A stretch of 64,000 bases of DNA from Micromonospora sp. NBC_01699 (GTDB lineage: Bacteria; Actinomycetota; Actinomycetes; Mycobacteriales; Micromonosporaceae), in assembly GCF_036250065.1 (NCBI RefSeq), contig NZ_CP109199.1, positions 2,232,001 to 2,296,000 on the forward strand. Reading direction: 5' to 3'. Positions 22,079 to 27,946 of the stretch are shown piece after piece. Numbering within the stretch: position 1 is the first letter of the stretch; each line of letters begins with the position of its first letter. The notes below the pieces were generated by a model that was given only the letters and a program-made list of their open reading frames with translations, had not been told where the DNA came from and did not search any database. The translations under genes and the position numbers were made by a program.

Positions 22079-22155
22079 GGCCCGCGATCGGCTGCCCGCC
22101 GGCCTCGTCCCGGCCGGCATCGCGGTGCTGGCCACTTGAAAGTGCCCGAGGCAGA

Positions 22156-22347
22156 ATGACCGCCTCAGGATGGGACAGGGTACGTGGCGCCGTCGTCACC
22201 ACCACGCCCGAAGACGAGTGGCGTGTCCTCGCCGAATGGACCCGGATCCTCGGACGCGTCGACGATCAGCTCCCCGTCATCCCCATCTGGTCACCGTCGG
22301 CGGTGGCGACGCCTGATCTCGACGGACACGTTCGTCTAGTGCCTTAG
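22156..22347 (+). CDS. Short hypothetical protein upstream of hicA, 63 aa
   Basis: The frame reads as a plausible soluble protein (DEWRVLAEWTRILGRVDDQLPVIPIW) with a weak GAGG-type site upstream. It may be a remnant of a larger gene. Its 3' end overlaps the first hicAB operator, and its end (VATPDLDG) is encoded by the 24-bp element that recurs after hicB. I know no family for it. Confidence 0.35.
   Translation: MTASGWDRVRGAVVTTTPEDEWRVLAEWTRILGRVDDQLPVIPIWSPSAVATPDLDGHVRLVP
22302..22325 (+). repeat. Imperfect 24-bp direct repeat, left copy
   Basis: This matches 23051-23074 at 22 of 24 positions (core GATCTCGACGG). The two copies lie on either side of hicAB, about 750 bp apart, in the same orientation and in frames that both encode a V-x-TPDLDG motif. 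Confidence 0.55.
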
Positions 22348-22372
22348 ACAACAAGCGTCTACCGCACTAGAC
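22334..22372. promoter_or_regulatory. Tandem hicAB operator: two GTCTA-N6-TAGAC dyads over a leaderless promoter
   Basis: Two 16-bp dyads, at 22334-22349 and 22357-22372, have identical GTCTA/TAGAC arms and centres 23 bp apart, about two helical turns, so a protein could bind both on one face. TAGACT at 22368-22373 is a good -10 hexamer six bases before the hicA ATG, so the second dyad covers the promoter. The likely binder is the HTH of HicB. Confidence 0.7.
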
Positions 22373-22379
22373 TTACGGC

Positions 22380-22571
22380 ATGAAGCGGGCCGACCTCCTC
22401 ACGGTGATCAGCAAGGCCGCCGCCGAGGCGGGCTGCGACTTCATTTTCGTGCGCGAAGGCGGCAGCCATACCGTCTACCGGTTCGGATCGCAGCAGTTCA
22501 CCGTGCCACGCCACAAAGAGATCAACGAGCTGACGGCGCGGGGCATCCTGCGCAACCTCGGGCTCAGGTAA
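22380..22571 (+). CDS. hicA: HicA-family mRNA interferase toxin
   Basis: A 63-aa toxin of the HicA family (dsRBD-like fold), which cuts mRNA until bound by HicB. The family signature is clear: an N-terminal helix MKRADLLTVISKAAAEAGC, then VREGGSHTVYRF with the catalytic His30, and VPRHKEINELTARGILRNL at the C-terminus. The length is normal. It precedes the antitoxin by 14 bases, the usual hicA-first order, and appears to be expressed from a leaderless promoter inside a dyad operator. Confidence 0.92.
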   Translation: MKRADLLTVISKAAAEAGCDFIFVREGGSHTVYRFGSQQFTVPRHKEINELTARGILRNLGLR

Positions 22572-22585
22572 GGGGGGACCAGTCG

Positions 22586-23023
22586 ATGGCTACATACACC
22601 GCCACCTGCACGCGGACGGACAACTGGTGGGCGATCACCGTTGCCGAACTGCCGGGTGTCTTTTCGCAGGCGCGCAGGCTAGACCAGGTGGAAGCGATGG
22701 CCCGAGACGCCATCGCAGCGCTCCTTGACGTGTCTCCCGAGAGCTTCGACATCGAGGTGCGGCCGGAGGTGCCCGGCGAGGTGAACGCAGCGCGTCGGGC
22801 ACGCGCCAGGCTGGTCGAAGCTGAGCGGTCGGCCGAGGAGGCCACCGTCGAGGCGGCTCGGAAGTTGCTCGCGGAGGGGTACACGGTGCGCGACGCCGGC
22901 AAATTACTCGGCATTTCGCCGCAGCGGGTCTCTCAGCTGACCGCCTCGAAAACGAAGCTACGCAAGGTCGGGCAACGTGGTGGCAAGCCAGCCACAGGAT
23001 CCGGGCGGACGGCTGCCGCCTGA
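22586..23023 (+). CDS. hicB: HicB-family antitoxin with C-terminal HTH
   Basis: A 145-aa antitoxin. The N-terminal HicB partial RNase H-like domain (ATCTRTDNWWAITVAELPGVFSQARRLDQ) neutralises HicA. The middle is a charged helical linker, and the C-terminal region (GYTVRDAGKLLGISPQRVSQL) is an HTH that should bind the operator dyads upstream. The gene has GGGGGA upstream of the ATG and follows hicA closely. Confidence 0.9.
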   Translation: MATYTATCTRTDNWWAITVAELPGVFSQARRLDQVEAMARDAIAALLDVSPESFDIEVRPEVPGEVNAARRARARLVEAERSAEEATVEAARKLLAEGYTVRDAGKLLGISPQRVSQLTASKTKLRKVGQRGGKPATGSGRTAAA

Positions 23024-23050
23024 GTACGTCGGACCGGGCCGCCCTCCTGT

Positions 23051-23074
23051 GGTGGTGACGCCGGATCTCGACGG
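23051..23074 (+). repeat. Imperfect 24-bp direct repeat, right copy
   Basis: Second copy of the element at 22302-22325, 28 bp after the hicB stop. Together the copies bracket the toxin-antitoxin module and could mark its insertion or an old duplication. Confidence 0.55.
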
Positions 23075-23115
23075 GTTGTCCCGTTCCGATCCGGCGTCAC
23101 AATCACGGAGGTACG

Positions 23116-26100
23116 TCAGGTGACGGTGATGACCACCTGGGCTGAGGTGGTGGCGCCGCTGCTGTCGGTCACCGTCAGACGGGCGGTGTAGCTGCCCTTG
23201 CGGGTGAAGGTGTGACTGGCGTTGGCGGTGTGTACGACCGCGGCGTTGTTGCCGAAGTCCCACGAGTAGTCGGTGATGGTGCGGCCGGGCGCGACAACCG
23301 CGGTACCGGTGAACGCGACCGTCCGGGGTGCCGTGCCACTCGTCGGGGTGGCGGTGATGCTCACCGTCGTACCGCTCTCCTGTTTGACGCCGGTGCCGTT
23401 GAACCGCAACCAGTCCACGGCCATCAGGTCCGGTGTGCCGCCCACCTGCGCCGGGTTGACGAAGACGGCGTAGAGGGTGATGGTCCCGCCGGGGTTGGTC
23501 AGGTTGGCGGTGGGGGAGATGACGTTGTCCCAGCCGCCGGTGCTCGGGACGGCGACGGTGCCGAGCACCGGCCCGGTCGGTGAGCCGGACCGGAACTCGA
23601 TCGTCCCGCCGCTGCTGCCGGAGCTGGCCCCGACGGTCACCGAGTTGATCCCCTGGAGGTTCACCGGCCCGAAGTTGACCCACTCGTTGTGGTCGACGTC
23701 GCCGAGGCGCTTGCCGGCCTTGGCTGTCGCCCGGTCGAGCACCTGGATGCCGGCGTGGGCGCCGTCGAAGTGCTCGATCTCCTTCGGCTTCACCTGCAAC
23801 TCGACCAGGGTCGAGCCGACCAGTGCCGGCACCCCACCGGTCGCGCCGCCGTCGGTGTACTGGGCGGTGAGCAGGGTGAACAGGTTCTGGCCCGGTCCGT
23901 GCCCGTCACCGGCGCTGCTGTCGGTGACCGCCACCCCGGAGCAGCCGGTGTAGTTGTCCAGCGGGTGGGCGTGCGAGTCGTGGCCGAGCTGGGTCTGCAC
24001 GATCACCCGCGAGCAGTCGATCGTGCCCTCCTCCGGGTCGGTGACCGTCACCGTGTACGGCACCCGGTCGCCGAACTCGAAGAAGCCGCCGTTCGGCACG
24101 CTCAGGGTGACCACCGGCCGGGTGTTGCCGGCGATGACCTCGGTGGTCGCCACCGCGCTCTGCCCACCCGTTCCGGTCACCGTCAGCCGGGCGGTGAACC
24201 GGCCCCGCGCGGTGTACGTGTACGTCGGGTTCGCGGCGGTGGAGTCGGTGCTGCCGTTGCCGTCGAAGTCCCAGGCATAGCTGATCGGCGCCCCGTCGCC
24301 GGAGGCCGAACCGGCGCTGGAGAACGTCACGGCCAGCGGCGTGGGCCCGCTGTCCCGGTTGGCGCTCGCCTTCGCCACCGGTGGGCGGCCGGTGGCCACG
24401 TAGTCGATCCGGTAGATGCCGGCGCCCTCGTTGGTGCCGCCCCGACCGCTGCCGGTGCCGGCACCGAAGTCGATCACGTAGAGCGAACCGTCGGGCCCGA
24501 ACTCGGCGTCGAACGGCTGGATCCAGGAGAAGTCACCGAGTACGCCGTTGATCGACTGGAGGTCACCGACGGCGGTTGGCCCGAACCGGGCGTTGGTGAA
24601 TGTCTGCGCGGTGCTGTGGATGGAGAGCGTCTTGAACCACTTGCGGGTCAGCTCGTAGACGATCCACTTGCCCTCGTAGTACTGCGGGAACTTGGTCGTC
24701 CGGGTGTTGGCCGGGTCGAAGTCGTACGACGGGCCGCCCATTGGGCCACCGCCGCCGGTGCCGACCTCGGGGAACTGCGTGGACGCGCCGTAGCCGTACC
24801 AGACCAGCGCGGAACGGGCGGCGGGCAGGTTGGTCAGGCCGGTGTTGTTCGGCGAGTTGTTGACCAGCGCCCCGCAGTTGAACTTCGCCCCGGAGGTCGA
24901 GGTCGCGAAGTTGTAGTCGTTGTACGGGATGTTGTTGCCGACGCAGTACGGCCAGCCGTAGTTGCCGGCGGTGGTGATCCGGTTGAACTCGACGATTCCG
25001 TCCGGTCCCCGGTTCGGGTTGGCCGCGGTGGCGTCCGGTCCGTAGTCGGCGACCAGCACAGCATTGGTGATCGGGTCGACGGTGATCCGGAACGGGTTGC
25101 GCATGCCCATCGCGTAGATCTCCGAGCGGGTCAACGCGGTGCCGGGGGCGAACAGGTTGCCGGTCGGCACGGTGTATGTACCGTCGGTCTGCGGCCTGAT
25201 CCGCAGGATCTTGCCACGCAGGTCGTTGGTGTTGCCGGAGGTGGCCTGCGCGTCCCAGGCCCGGCGGCCGGGGCGCTCGTCGATCGGGGCGAAGCCGCTG
25301 GAGTCGAACGGGTCGGTGTTGTCGCCGATGGCCGCGTACAGGTTGCCCTGTTTGTCCATTGCCAGCGAGCCGCCCATGTGCGAGTTGGCCCGGCCCTCAC
25401 CCCGGTAGGTGGGGATGGTGAGCAGCCGTTTCTCGCTGGTCAGCGCGATCGAGTTGCCGGTGACCGTGAACCGGGACAGATTGAGCTGGTTGAGCGTCTT
25501 GTCCGACCACAGTAGATAGATCCAGTTGTTGGTGGCGAAGTTGTTGTCCAGGGTCATGCCGATCAACCCGTCGGACTGGCTGGTCTGGGCCGGGGTGTAG
25601 GCGAAGTCGACCAGGGTGGTGACGCCGAGCGTGCTCTGGTTGATCACCTTCACCGCGCCGGTGCGCTGGATGTAGAAGACCCGCCGGTCGGCCGCCACGG
25701 CCAGTTCGAACGGGTCGGCCAGGTCGGCGCTGACCAGCGGGACCTTCTGGAAGTTGCTGCTCTTGGTGGCGGCGCAGTCGCCGGGGATCGCGCCGGCCGC
25801 CCATTCGATGCCACCGCGCAGGTGGTTGAGGAAGTACGGTTCGCTGAACGACGACGAGGCGTGCCCGCCGGCGGTGTACCAGGATCGACCGCCGTCATAG
25901 TTCTGGCACCAGGAATAGGCGTGGTCGACGCCTTCGTCCAGGCCGTTGATCCCGTCGCGGACCTTGATCTGGGCGAGGGTGTGCACCTTGTTCGTGGGGT
26001 TGGTCTTCCAGTTGTACCATTCCTCGCTGCGTTCCCAGAGTTCCGGCAGGCCCTGGGTGGACGGGTGGGCCTTGTCCAACACCTTGATCCGGCCGGGGAA

Positions 26101-26565
26101 GACGCCACCGGTGGAGCCGAAGTCCGGGTGGTAGTCGAAGATGGTGCCGACCAGGCCCTCGTACCAGACCCAGTCGCGCTCGCTGGCGGTCGCCGCGTGC
26201 AGCCCGACCCAGCCGCCGCCGGAGCGGACGAAGTTCTGGAAGGCGGTGCGCTGGGCCGCGTTGAGCAGGTCACCGGCGGCCGGGGTGGAGTTGGTGTTGT
26301 TGAACACCAGGGCGTCGAACCGGGCCAGGTTGGCGTCGGTGAACGCCGCCGCGTCGGTGGTCGCCTCGACCTCGAAGTCGTGGGTGAGACCGAGCTGTTG
26401 GATCGCGGCGACGCCGGCCGGGATCGAGTCGTGGTAGAAGTTCGTCGTCTTCGAGAAGACCAGTACCCGGAACCGGGCCGCTGCCGATGCGGGAGCCGGG
26501 GCAATGGTCAGGACGAGGGCGGTGATCGCGAGCAGGGCGATCGGGATGGATCGTAAGCGTCTCAT
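23116..26565 (-). CDS. Secreted ThuA - PQQ sugar dehydrogenase - PKD - CBM6-like protein
   Basis: A 1149-aa secreted protein. A signal peptide (IALLAITALVLTIAPAPASA) precedes a ThuA-like/trehalose-utilisation domain (about 31-275, FRVLVFSKTTNFYHDS and GGWVGLHAATASE). A glucose/sorbosone dehydrogenase-type beta-propeller follows (about 290-725), with DGLIGMTLDNNF and ADYGPDA. Then come a PKD domain (ISYAWDFDGNGS, about 730-815), a CBM6-like carbohydrate-binding module (GDVDHNEWVNFG, DWLRFNGTG, about 928-1055) and a terminal PKD domain. It probably oxidises or binds sugars on extracellular polysaccharide. The ATG at 26565 has GGGAG upstream, and a LacI-type palindrome lies 31 bp before it. Confidence 0.9.
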   Translation of the reverse strand: MRRLRSIPIALLAITALVLTIAPAPASAAARFRVLVFSKTTNFYHDSIPAGVAAIQQLGLTHDFEVEATTDAAAFTDANLARFDALVFNNTNSTPAAGDLLNAAQRTAFQNFVRSGGGWVGLHAATASERDWVWYEGLVGTIFDYHPDFGSTGGVFPGRIKVLDKAHPSTQGLPELWERSEEWYNWKTNPTNKVHTLAQIKVRDGINGLDEGVDHAYSWCQNYDGGRSWYTAGGHASSSFSEPYFLNHLRGGIEWAAGAIPGDCAATKSSNFQKVPLVSADLADPFELAVAADRRVFYIQRTGAVKVINQSTLGVTTLVDFAYTPAQTSQSDGLIGMTLDNNFATNNWIYLLWSDKTLNQLNLSRFTVTGNSIALTSEKRLLTIPTYRGEGRANSHMGGSLAMDKQGNLYAAIGDNTDPFDSSGFAPIDERPGRRAWDAQATSGNTNDLRGKILRIRPQTDGTYTVPTGNLFAPGTALTRSEIYAMGMRNPFRITVDPITNAVLVADYGPDATAANPNRGPDGIVEFNRITTAGNYGWPYCVGNNIPYNDYNFATSTSGAKFNCGALVNNSPNNTGLTNLPAARSALVWYGYGASTQFPEVGTGGGGPMGGPSYDFDPANTRTTKFPQYYEGKWIVYELTRKWFKTLSIHSTAQTFTNARFGPTAVGDLQSINGVLGDFSWIQPFDAEFGPDGSLYVIDFGAGTGSGRGGTNEGAGIYRIDYVATGRPPVAKASANRDSGPTPLAVTFSSAGSASGDGAPISYAWDFDGNGSTDSTAANPTYTYTARGRFTARLTVTGTGGQSAVATTEVIAGNTRPVVTLSVPNGGFFEFGDRVPYTVTVTDPEEGTIDCSRVIVQTQLGHDSHAHPLDNYTGCSGVAVTDSSAGDGHGPGQNLFTLLTAQYTDGGATGGVPALVGSTLVELQVKPKEIEHFDGAHAGIQVLDRATAKAGKRLGDVDHNEWVNFGPVNLQGINSVTVGASSGSSGGTIEFRSGSPTGPVLGTVAVPSTGGWDNVISPTANLTNPGGTITLYAVFVNPAQVGGTPDLMAVDWLRFNGTGVKQESGTTVSITATPTSGTAPRTVAFTGTAVVAPGRTITDYSWDFGNNAAVVHTANASHTFTRKGSYTARLTVTDSSGATTSAQVVITVT

Positions 26566-26596
26566 GCAGGCGCTCCCGGTAATAGGGACGGATAAT

Positions 26597-26610
26597 GGAA
26601 AGCGCTTTCC
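26597..26610. promoter_or_regulatory. LacI-type operator GGAAAGCGCTTTCC (perfect)
   Basis: A 14-bp perfect palindrome 31 bp upstream of the ThuA/PQQ gene. It matches the AAGCGCTT core bound by LacI-family sugar regulators. Three close variants occur at 30824-30837, 30867-30880 and 32836-32849. Confidence 0.7.
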
Positions 26611-26740
26611 TGCCGCCGACGGATCAAGCCTACGTAACCAATCCGAAATGGTCAATGTGTGAAGGTCCGGATCCCGGTGCGGGCGTTTTCGCGTACCGGC
26701 AAAGAATCGGGATAGCCTTTTCTGGCATAGCCGTAATCGA

Positions 26741-27946
26741 TCATGTTGGTCGGGGTCGGCCGGCACCCACGTGCACCGCCGTGGCCAGGGCCGCGAGCGC
26801 CAGTCCGGTGACCGCCGCGACGGTCAGCCCGGCGGCGGTCAGCGCGGTCGCCACCAGGCCCGCCGGCAGCCAGGTCCAGACCGGCACGATCCTGGCCGGA
26901 TGCCCGCGCCGGCGCCGCCACGCCTCGGTCGCCATCGGCACGATCAGCGGCGGCAACGTCGCGGCGAGCACCGCCAGCCAGGGCAGCAGCAACCGGTCGA
27001 ACCGGGCCGCGGCAAGCACCGCGCCGGGCACCGCGACGATCAACATCCCGGCCGTGGGGGAGAGCGCCGGCCAGCCGCCACGCAGCGCCAGGGCCCCGGA
27101 GTACGTCGTGGTCAGCGCCGGTGCGAACACCGCCGCGGTGACGAACAGATTGCCGTACGCGGCCAGCCCGGTGCTGCCGGCCAGCACCGCCACCACGTCG
27201 GTCGAGCCGGTGCGCAGCCACACCCCCGCCCCGGCCACGCCGACCGCCACCGCCGGCGCCACCAGCAGCAGCACGCACCAGCCCAGGTCACGCCGGCTGG
27301 CCAGCCCCCGGCTGAAGTCCGGGGCGCGCAGGGCGAACACGGAGACGTACCCGGTCATGGCGGCGATGTCGGCGGCGGTCGCCCAGCCGCCCGGATCCAG
27401 GGTGACCGGCGCGGACGTCGGCGGCAGTTGGGCCACACAGAGCGCGACCAGGCCGAGTGCCGCCAGCGTGGTGGCCACCGCTATCCGGTTGCCGAGCCGG
27501 GGCGAGGCGTACGACACCGCCAGCACCGCCCCGGCCAGCAGCAGCGCCCCGACCGGGCCGGGCAGCCGCAGCACCGTGGCCAGCGACGCCCCGCCCAGCC
27601 CGACGTTGAAGCCGAACCAGCCGATCATGGCGACGCCGAGCACCACGCTCAGTACGGCCCGCCCGGCCGCCGGCAGGTAACGCGGCGCCACCTCGGTCAG
27701 CGTGCCGCCGTCGCCGTACGGTGGCCGGACCCCGAGCGCGCCCTGCCCGAACAGCAGCAGCGCCATCAGTGCCGCCCCACCCACCAACGCCAGTACGGGC
27801 ACCGCCCCGTGGTGCCGGTCGGCCATGCCCGCGCCCAGGATCAGGGCGGCCGGCGCGGCGCCCAGGCCGAGCCAGGCCCCGGCGGCGGCGGTCCACCGAC
27901 GGGGCTGGTCGAGTCGGGCGGACTGCCCGCCCAGCGGGGCGATCAG
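26741..27946 (-). CDS. Purine/cytosine (NCS1)-type permease, probable CTG start
   Basis: An integral membrane protein of about 401 aa with some 11-12 hydrophobic segments. Sequence such as SARLDQPRRWTAAAGAWLGLG at the N-terminus and FGQGALGVRPPYGDGG suggests the NCS1 purine/cytosine/HMP transporter family, though weakly. It closes the minus-strand ABC operon. No ATG, GTG or TTG fits before the first helix. A CTG at 27946 would overlap the ABC ATPase stop by four bases (CTGA), in line with translational coupling. The next in-frame ATG would remove the first membrane segment. Confidence 0.65.
   Translation of the reverse strand: MIAPLGGQSARLDQPRRWTAAAGAWLGLGAAPAALILGAGMADRHHGAVPVLALVGGAALMALLLFGQGALGVRPPYGDGGTLTEVAPRYLPAAGRAVLSVVLGVAMIGWFGFNVGLGGASLATVLRLPGPVGALLLAGAVLAVSYASPRLGNRIAVATTLAALGLVALCVAQLPPTSAPVTLDPGGWATAADIAAMTGYVSVFALRAPDFSRGLASRRDLGWCVLLLVAPAVAVGVAGAGVWLRTGSTDVVAVLAGSTGLAAYGNLFVTAAVFAPALTTTYSGALALRGGWPALSPTAGMLIVAVPGAVLAAARFDRLLLPWLAVLAATLPPLIVPMATEAWRRRRGHPARIVPVWTWLPAGLVATALTAAGLTVAAVTGLALAALATAVHVGAGRPRPT

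What the first reader, a model, noticed from the sequence alone, without database searches (positions are those of the whole stretch)
22334..22372. Paired dyad operators and leaderless promoter in front of hicA
Two GTCTA-N6-TAGAC dyads with centres 23 bp apart cover a TAGACT hexamer placed six bases before the hicA ATG. The spacing puts both on one DNA face. HicB carries a C-terminal HTH. The arrangement predicts cooperative autorepression by HicB or HicAB.
Basis: partly seen in the sequence, partly recalled or inferred. Interest (0 to 1): 0.5.

Follow-up and report, generated by a model that had tools for sequence, protein, structure and literature searches.

The report
HicB operator pair over leaderless promoter
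Two matching DNA symmetry sites sit exactly on the two halves of the promoter of a small bacterial toxin-antitoxin gene pair, and the same design recurs in many related bacteria and in some phages and plasmids, so the antitoxin very probably switches its own genes off by covering that promoter.

Summary
GTCTAGTGCCTTAGAC (22334-22349) and GTCTACCGCACTAGAC (22357-22372) lie 23 bp apart and are the only exact GTCTA-N6-TAGAC sites in the 8.28 Mb genome. The 23 bp is the promoter's own period, not a same-face spacing (about 2.2 turns).

Comparison supports function. A model of 17 relatives' sites, window excluded, ranks the window's site first in its genome; in 300 family genomes its 26 matches (25 places, 17 of them training sites) all lie beside hicA and hicB. 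In more distant relatives the inner spacing mostly changes together in both dyads (5, 6, 7 or 8 bp; equal in 39 of 46). A phage and two plasmids share the layout.

Best reading: HicB, alone or with HicA, represses a leaderless hicAB promoter through two dyads in register with -35 and -10. Binding and cooperativity are inferred. Paired HicB operators are known in Yersinia pestis; this is a new variant.

The parts
22334..22349 (.). Dyad O1, GTCTA-GTGCCT-TAGAC; proposed HicB operator on the -35 element
   Evidence: same register in 20 of 21 family loci with a placed hicA start, window included (L030 does not fit)
22357..22372 (.). Dyad O2, GTCTA-CCGCAC-TAGAC; proposed HicB operator on the -10 element
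   Evidence: conserved in relatives
22345..22350 (+). -35 hexamer TAGACA = right arm of O1 plus one base
   Evidence: in relatives this arm is often TTTACT or TTGACT
22368..22373 (+). -10 hexamer TAGACT = right arm of O2 plus one base; its TAG is also an in-frame stop upstream of hicA, so no earlier start codon can be used
   Evidence: begins TA in 40 of 40 loci counted, whose register choice already required T then A or G and thereby dropped L122
22380..22380 (+). Predicted transcription start = A of the hicA ATG (leaderless)
   Evidence: inference from the -10 position; no RNA data
22380..22571 (+). hicA toxin gene, 63 aa, His30 in REGGSH
   Evidence: PF07927, 31.6 bits, cutoff 27
22572..22577 (+). 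GGGGGG, Shine-Dalgarno-like, 8 nt before the hicB ATG
   Evidence: sequence
22586..23023 (+). hicB antitoxin gene, 145 aa
   Evidence: (PF15919 24.7 bits, below the cutoff of 27)
22775..22873 (+). HicB residues 64-96: long helix linking the N-terminal domain to the helix-turn-helix, possible dimer element
   Evidence: the dimer role is inference
22886..22951 (+). HicB residues 101-122: helix-turn-helix
   Evidence: model m83e17a509156, block pLDDT 97 and 92 for residues 101-120; PF13384 24.5 bits, cutoff 24.6
22302..22325 (+). Left copy of a 24-bp direct repeat (22 of 24 identical) flanking the hicAB cassette
23051..23074 (+). Right copy of the direct repeat; a single copy in the congener G048, which lacks hicAB

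Best explanation
The two dyads are operators for HicB (alone or as HicAB). One HicB dimer reads each inward-facing GTCTA/TAGAC pair through its C-terminal helix-turn-helix. The right half-site of O1 is the -35 hexamer and the right half-site of O2 is the -10 hexamer of a sigma-70-type promoter with a 17-bp spacer, so two bound dimers cover the whole core promoter and exclude RNA polymerase. Transcription is predicted to start at the A of the hicA ATG, giving a leaderless toxin cistron followed by a Shine-Dalgarno-led hicB. When HicB is scarce (or HicA in excess) repression is relieved and the operon is resupplied. Shown: sequence, register, conservation, specificity for hicAB loci in the family, mostly concerted change of both dyads, a predicted helix-turn-helix. 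Inferred: binding, which complex binds, cooperativity, the transcription start, the derepression rule.
For: Exact dyads coincide with the only sigma-70-like promoter found between 22080 and 23130. In 21 Micromonosporaceae hicAB loci (window included) the half-sites carry 1.78 bits per position, the inner 6 bp 0.43, the upstream flank 0.13. Of 30 loci with a good second dyad, 26 have the first best placed at exactly 23 bp, two at 24, one at 22, one at 26. A model without the window ranks the window's site first in its genome (E 0.0023, next 1.19 with no hicAB). Its 26 matches (25 places) in 21 of 300 family genomes all lie beside hicA and hicB. Inner spacing is equal in both dyads in 39 of 46 strong loci as scored, at 5, 6, 7 or 8 bp; 13 of the 39 are not 6. 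A motif-free scan has equal spacings in 30 of the 37 loci (of 69 scored) that beat all 60 shuffles. The right arm of O1 begins TT in 20 of 40, the other three arms in 2 of 120, as a -35 would; in the motif-free scan that arm is GTAAA/GTCAA (read inward) in 14 of 69, the others in 3, 1 and 0. The -10 to start distance is 5-8 nt in 40 of 40 (scan range 3-10), starts GTG or ATG in 39 of 40.
Against: No binding or RNA data for this clade turned up. HicB domain scores sit below Pfam's cutoffs and structural matches are middling (Z 5-7; Foldseek best E 0.041). Many distant HicB homologues lack a clear pair: 41 of 97 loci with a lenient hicA call fall below 15 of 20; 32 of 69 scored loci do not beat all shuffles, and 12 more had no scorable start. 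Only 7 of 394 class genomes match the narrow model although 97 carry a HicB relative, and two weak partial matches there have no hicAB (L098, L099). 17 of the 25 family places trained the model; 8 are independent. The wide searches used stricter filters that lose weak matches. Seven of 46 strong loci have unequal spacings as scored, five after L022 and L024 are put in the 23-bp register (L030 and L149 are one place). The arm count rests on a scan that allowed TTGAC and TTTAC in that arm only. Loci are related, so counts are not independent.
Confidence: 0.85

Rival explanations
1. The dyads are bound by a different regulator and HicB's helix-turn-helix acts elsewhere.
For: No direct binding data; many unrelated regulators use 16-bp palindromes (general knowledge).
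Against: In 300 family genomes all 26 model matches at E <= 0.01 lie beside hicAB; congeners G010 and G048 without hicB have no match; the layout goes with hicAB on one phage and two plasmids of other genera; the spacing is clustered on the HicB tree (8 changes, shuffled mean 12.4).
Confidence: 0.08
2. RNA element: the dyads form hairpins in a longer leader (attenuator or processing site).
For: The two dyads also form one larger imperfect inverted repeat, arms 22329-22349 and 22357-22377, 81% complementary.
Against: No compensatory change: covariation score 0.040 against 0.040 in shuffles, 76.5% of cells paired against 76.7% (17 sites); letters are conserved instead of pairing; a promoter sits inside the element.
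Confidence: 0.03
3. One composite four-half-site operator read by a HicB tetramer or HicAB higher complex, with the gap between the dyads as important as the dyads; in the extreme the outward pair (O1 right with O2 left) would be the unit. This is compatible with autorepression; it differs in how the protein sits.
For: HicB tetramers are reported for RHH-type HicB (review PMC11594946, passages seen). The whole element is quasi-symmetric. The outward gap is 7 bp in 31 of 39 loci with equal spacings, including 5 of 6 loci with 7-bp dyads, where the promoter spacer has grown to 18.
Against: The outward gap is 5, 6, 8 or 9 in the other 8 loci, while the two inward spacings are equal in 39 of 46 strong loci (the 39 were chosen for equality).
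Confidence: 0.35
4. Chance repeats in a low-constraint intergenic region.
For: Sites with up to two mismatches are no commoner than in shuffles.
Against: Register on promoter and start codon, and conservation across genera and families.
Confidence: 0.01

Closest known systems
Yersinia pestis hicA3-hicB3 promoter with operators BS1 and BS2
   Same: Toxin-first hicAB operon; two inverted repeats in the hicA promoter region bound by HicB3 and HicAB3; BS2 overlaps the -10 box (review PMC11594946, passages).
   Different: HicB3 has a ribbon-helix-helix domain; 15-bp operators described as flanking the promoter; here a helix-turn-helix, 16-bp dyads each ending in a promoter hexamer, and a predicted leaderless start.
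Escherichia coli K-12 hicAB with operator hicO at P2
   Same: HicB with a C-terminal HTH autoregulates; excess HicA relieves repression (PMC11594946, PMC10865869, passages).
   Different: Two promoters, P2 gives antitoxin only, one operator; the structural match to 6hpb_B is N-terminal (model residues 2-52).
Leaderless toxin-antitoxin operons of Mycobacterium tuberculosis
   Same: 32 of 37 TA gene pairs with a primary start site were leaderless; TANNNT centred 7-12 bp before the start (PMC3898074, passages). Here TAGACT is centred 9.5 bp before the ATG.
   Different: The passages seen describe promoters genome-wide, not HicB operators in register with them.
Lambda OR operators (recalled, no call)
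   Same: 17-bp dyads about 23-24 bp apart, cooperative dimers over a promoter.
   Different: Unrelated repressor; cooperativity not shown here.

Membership tests
hicAB type II toxin-antitoxin, class with C-terminal HTH (class 3 of PMC10865869) | hicA directly upstream of hicB on one strand | tested here: met
   22380-22571 and 22586-23023, 14 nt apart
hicAB type II toxin-antitoxin, class with C-terminal HTH (class 3 of PMC10865869) | HicA domain with catalytic histidine | tested here: met
   PF07927 31.6 bits above cutoff 27; His30 in REGGSH, kept in the relatives with a full-length hicA printed. That this His is the catalytic one is by analogy.
hicAB type II toxin-antitoxin, class with C-terminal HTH (class 3 of PMC10865869) | HicB N-terminal partial RNase H fold | tested here: met
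   PF15919 E 2.8e-5 but below its cutoff; model residues 1-61 match HicB chains 6u0i, 6hpb, 6g1n, 4p7d at Z 5.6-6.4, a middling range
hicAB type II toxin-antitoxin, class with C-terminal HTH (class 3 of PMC10865869) | C-terminal HTH DNA-binding domain | tested here: met
   Predicted helices 101-108 and 112-122; matches to DeoR, HetR, TrpR, resolvases and sigma region 4 at Z about 5-6.6, middling; PF13384 24.5 bits, cutoff 24.6
hicAB type II toxin-antitoxin, class with C-terminal HTH (class 3 of PMC10865869) | Toxicity of HicA and neutralisation by HicB | not testable with these tools
   needs expression assay
Autoregulated TA operator | Palindromic operator overlapping the operon promoter | tested here: met
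   (promoter by consensus only)
Autoregulated TA operator | Binding by antitoxin and repression | not testable with these tools
   inferred from conservation and specificity
Leaderless promoter | TANNNT centred 7-12 bp before an ATG/GTG start, no Shine-Dalgarno | tested here: met
   -10 to start 5-8 nt in 40 of 40 counted loci
Leaderless promoter | Mapped transcription start at the start codon | not testable with these tools
   no RNA data held

The most novel reading that the evidence does not exclude
An actinobacterial HicB clade, carried on chromosomes, plasmids and phages, uses one shared operator-promoter grammar. A single repressor half-site, T[A/T]GAC, serves as both -35 and -10 hexamer; two dyads are locked to the promoter period; and the inner dyad spacing (5, 6, 7 or 8 bp), and in one genus the arm letters, change in step as HicB diverges. 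That would give coexisting HicAB copies private operators and so insulate them from one another.
Probability: 0.5. Interest if true: 0.6.

Novelty: new variant of a known kind. Interest (0 to 1): 0.45.

Why it matters
If right, it gives a readable code: from DNA alone one can predict the operator, the promoter and the start of leaderless hicAB operons across many Actinomycetota, and which HicB paralogues could cross-talk. It also offers a natural series in which repressor dimer spacing and promoter geometry evolve together, which a handful of DNA fragments would test. It bears on how toxin-first operons are kept safe when the toxin is translated from a leaderless start.

Tried and rejected
Same-face argument: rejected on arithmetic (2.19 turns) and because relatives use 22-24 bp in step with the promoter spacer. 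RNA hairpin: disfavoured. Wider regulon: the site model gives no second good place in the own genome. NCBIfam and PADLOC scans gave no HicA, HicB or defence family for either protein at E <= 1. Foldseek against PDB had no match at E <= 0.001, so the structural evidence is supportive only. The genome-contig scan gave five relatives, four at 45-48% identity and one short 74% stretch. A link between inner spacing and one HicB residue or helix length was looked for by eye in the alignment and not found. The tree is weak at depth (15 of 37 inner branches starred, 12 open, long branches meeting), so the 8 changes are a parsimony figure; starred branches force only one per group. An earlier form of this report said the outward gap between the dyads is not kept; the recount shows 7 bp in 31 of 39 loci, so I mended that and raised the composite-operator rival from 0.30 to 0.35.

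Rows dropped or adjusted: the site model used 17 of the 24 rows (window, L024, L025, L030, L033, L035, L036 left out). L022 and L024 were scored 10,6 and put by hand at 6,6 for because one search shows the 23-bp register. In one search L122 had no register and was dropped (40 of 41). One search used only the 41 loci with equal spacings. One search took the 81 loci with hicA at E <= 1e-3; 12 had no scorable start, leaving 69. L149 is the same place as L030; L167 is a second copy in the genome of L016.

Full report
Observation. The window holds hicA at 22380-22571 (63 aa, PF07927 above its cutoff) and hicB at 22586-23023 (145 aa; PF15919 below its cutoff; several helix-turn-helix models weakly). 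Directly in front lie GTCTAGTGCCTTAGAC (22334-22349) and GTCTACCGCACTAGAC (22357-22372). These are the only two exact places of GTCTA-N6-TAGAC in the 8,280,328-bp genome; the pattern read backwards has four. One such site would be unremarkable in a genome of this size; two side by side in front of an autoregulated kind of operon are not.

Anatomy. The scan for sigma-70-like promoters finds a single site in 22080-23130: TAGACA (22345-22350), 17 bp, TAGACT (22368-22373), 9 of 12 consensus positions, shuffled mean 0.0. The first hexamer is the right arm of dyad 1 plus one base, the second is the right arm of dyad 2 plus one base. The 23-bp distance of the dyads is thus the distance of the promoter hexamers. 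Six bases follow to the hicA ATG. The TAG of the -10 hexamer is in frame with hicA, so no start codon further upstream can be used. hicB has GGGGGG eight bases before its ATG; hicA has no such element. In M. tuberculosis 32 of 37 TA pairs with a primary start site were leaderless, and TANNNT is centred 7-12 bp before the start (PMC3898074, passages read); here the centre is 9.5 bp before the ATG. Leaderlessness here is inference.

Relatives. HicB relatives occur in 64 of 300 family genomes and, with a profile, in 97 of 394 class genomes. In 20 of 21 family loci with a placed hicA start (window included) the same two dyads stand in the same register; L030 does not fit. Of 30 loci with a good second dyad, the first is best placed at exactly 23 bp in 26, at 24 in two, at 22 and 26 in one each. 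Half-site positions carry 1.78 bits on average, the inner six 0.43, the upstream flank 0.13 (21 loci, window included).

Specificity. A sequence-only model of 17 sites, the window's left out, ranks the window's site first in its genome (E 0.0023; next 1.19, with no hicAB nearby). In 300 family genomes it gives, at E <= 0.01 and with stricter filters, 26 matches at 25 places in 21 genomes, and each lies beside hicA and hicB. 17 of these places trained the model; 8 are independent, the window among them. In 394 class genomes it gives at E <= 0.05 10 matches at 8 distinct places in 7 genomes: 5 with hicAB, one (G310 contig 47, L100) with the operator and what look like only the first codons of a hicA, and two weak partial matches without hicAB. 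The narrow model misses most distant relatives, which is expected if their sites differ.

Distant relatives. I scanned 123 loci with a HicB hit; 97 have a hicA call at E <= 1. 56 score at least 15 of 20 for two GTCTA/TAGAC dyads in promoter register and 46 at least 17. In 39 of the 46 the inner spacing is the same in both dyads; two more (L022, L024) are equal in the register; L030 (= L149), L044, L113 and L140 are not. The shared value is 6 in 26, 5 in five (L130, L150, L157, L161, L165), 7 in six (L035, L042, L151, L153, L154, L155) and 8 in two (L047, L122). A scan given no motif, only four agreeing half-sites, could score 69 of 81 loci; 37 of the 69 beat all 60 shuffles, and in 30 of these 37 the two spacings are equal; its registers sometimes slide by a base or more. 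On a tree of the 41 HicB proteins with equal spacings the value needs 8 changes (shuffled mean 12.4, as low in 0 of 200), but deep branches are weak. Each such change hits both dyads, as expected if one protein reads both. The gap between the dyads is 7 bp in 31 of the 39 loci and 5, 6, 8 or 9 in the rest. In five of the six loci with 7-bp dyads it stays 7 while the promoter spacer becomes 18. So both the dyads and the gap look constrained, within promoter spacers of 16-18, which is what a bridged pair of dimers would give; this raises, but does not show, cooperativity.

Promoter or operator? Across 40 loci the second base of the arm is T in 20 of 40 for the right arm of dyad 1 and in 2 of 120 for the other three arms. 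That arm drifts to TTTACT or TTGACT, a better -35, while its mates stay mostly TAGAC. The scan allowed TTGAC and TTTAC in that arm only, which favours this result; in the motif-free scan the same arm is GTAAA/GTCAA (read inward) in 14 of 69 loci and the other three in 3, 1 and 0. The spacer is 17 in 30, 18 in 9 and 16 in 1; hexamer to start is 5-8 nt; starts are GTG 25, ATG 14, and one (L041) misplaced by a base.

Mobile copies. HicB relatives, all under 60% identity, occur in 27 plasmid and 34 phage records. Of six regions read, Gordonia phage Santhid (L174) and plasmids of Janibacter (L176) and Kitasatospora (L177) show a clear dyad pair before the gene upstream of hicB, by my reading with inner spacings 7,7, 6,6 and 7,7; Agueybana (L173) has a looser version, DelRio (L178) none at its annotated start, and the Rhodococcus plasmid stretch (L175) is cut by the record's end.

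Protein. AlphaFold2 on 23 HicB sequences gives mean pLDDT 88.7: a HicB-type N-terminal domain, a helix 64-96, and a helix-turn-helix 101-122. Among N-terminal matches are HicB chains (Z 5.3-6.4; the best N-terminal row is 1wv8, a hypothetical protein, Z 7.6); the HTH matches DeoR, HetR, TrpR, resolvases and sigma region 4, all at middling Z. RNA structure is not supported.

Known kind. Paired HicB operators with one over the -10 box are described for Y. pestis hicA3B3, and a palindromic operator bound by HTH-type HicB for E. coli (PMC11594946 and PMC10865869, passages read). The mechanism is therefore of a known kind. What the listings did not show is the promoter-locked pair, the leaderless start in this clade, and the concerted change of dyad spacing.

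Noticed in passing
window 22302-22325 and 23051-23074: A 24-bp direct repeat (22 of 24) flanks the hicAB cassette; congener G048 has one copy and no hicAB, so about 749 bp (operator, hicA, hicB) came or went as a unit, beside an inverted repeat at 23049-23106. In G048 the LysR neighbour lies some 12.7 kb off; G010 has other DNA there.
   Followed up: partly
L156, L159, L162, L164 (genus g11): Operators read CTCTA/TAGAG instead of GTCTA/TAGAC, and all four HicB proteins have SEQR at the start of the recognition helix where GTCTA loci mostly have S(P/H/Y/A)QR: a possible specificity pair. Against: L136 has a CTCTA-like site with SAQR, and L156 and L164 have unequal spacings 6,7.
   Followed up: partly
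L100 (G310 contig 47): Operator plus what look like the first codons of hicA without the rest, just after what looks like a tRNA 3' end: a remnant of a lost module.
   Followed up: no
L013, L015, L018 (G060, G092, G120): hicB relatives with no hicA found next to them by tblastn; these genomes also have no match to the operator model.
   Followed up: no
L062 upstream of hicA: A long near-perfect palindrome (AATCCCCCCTAGAT...ATCTAGGGGGGATT) replaces the usual pair.
   Followed up: no
L173 (Gordonia phage Agueybana): Perhaps three dyads in a row before hicA, two genes from the integrase gene.
   Followed up: no
window 23116-26766: The neighbouring 1216-aa gene on the minus strand has many partial relatives at 63-75% DNA identity elsewhere in this genome and its two congeners.
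   Followed up: no
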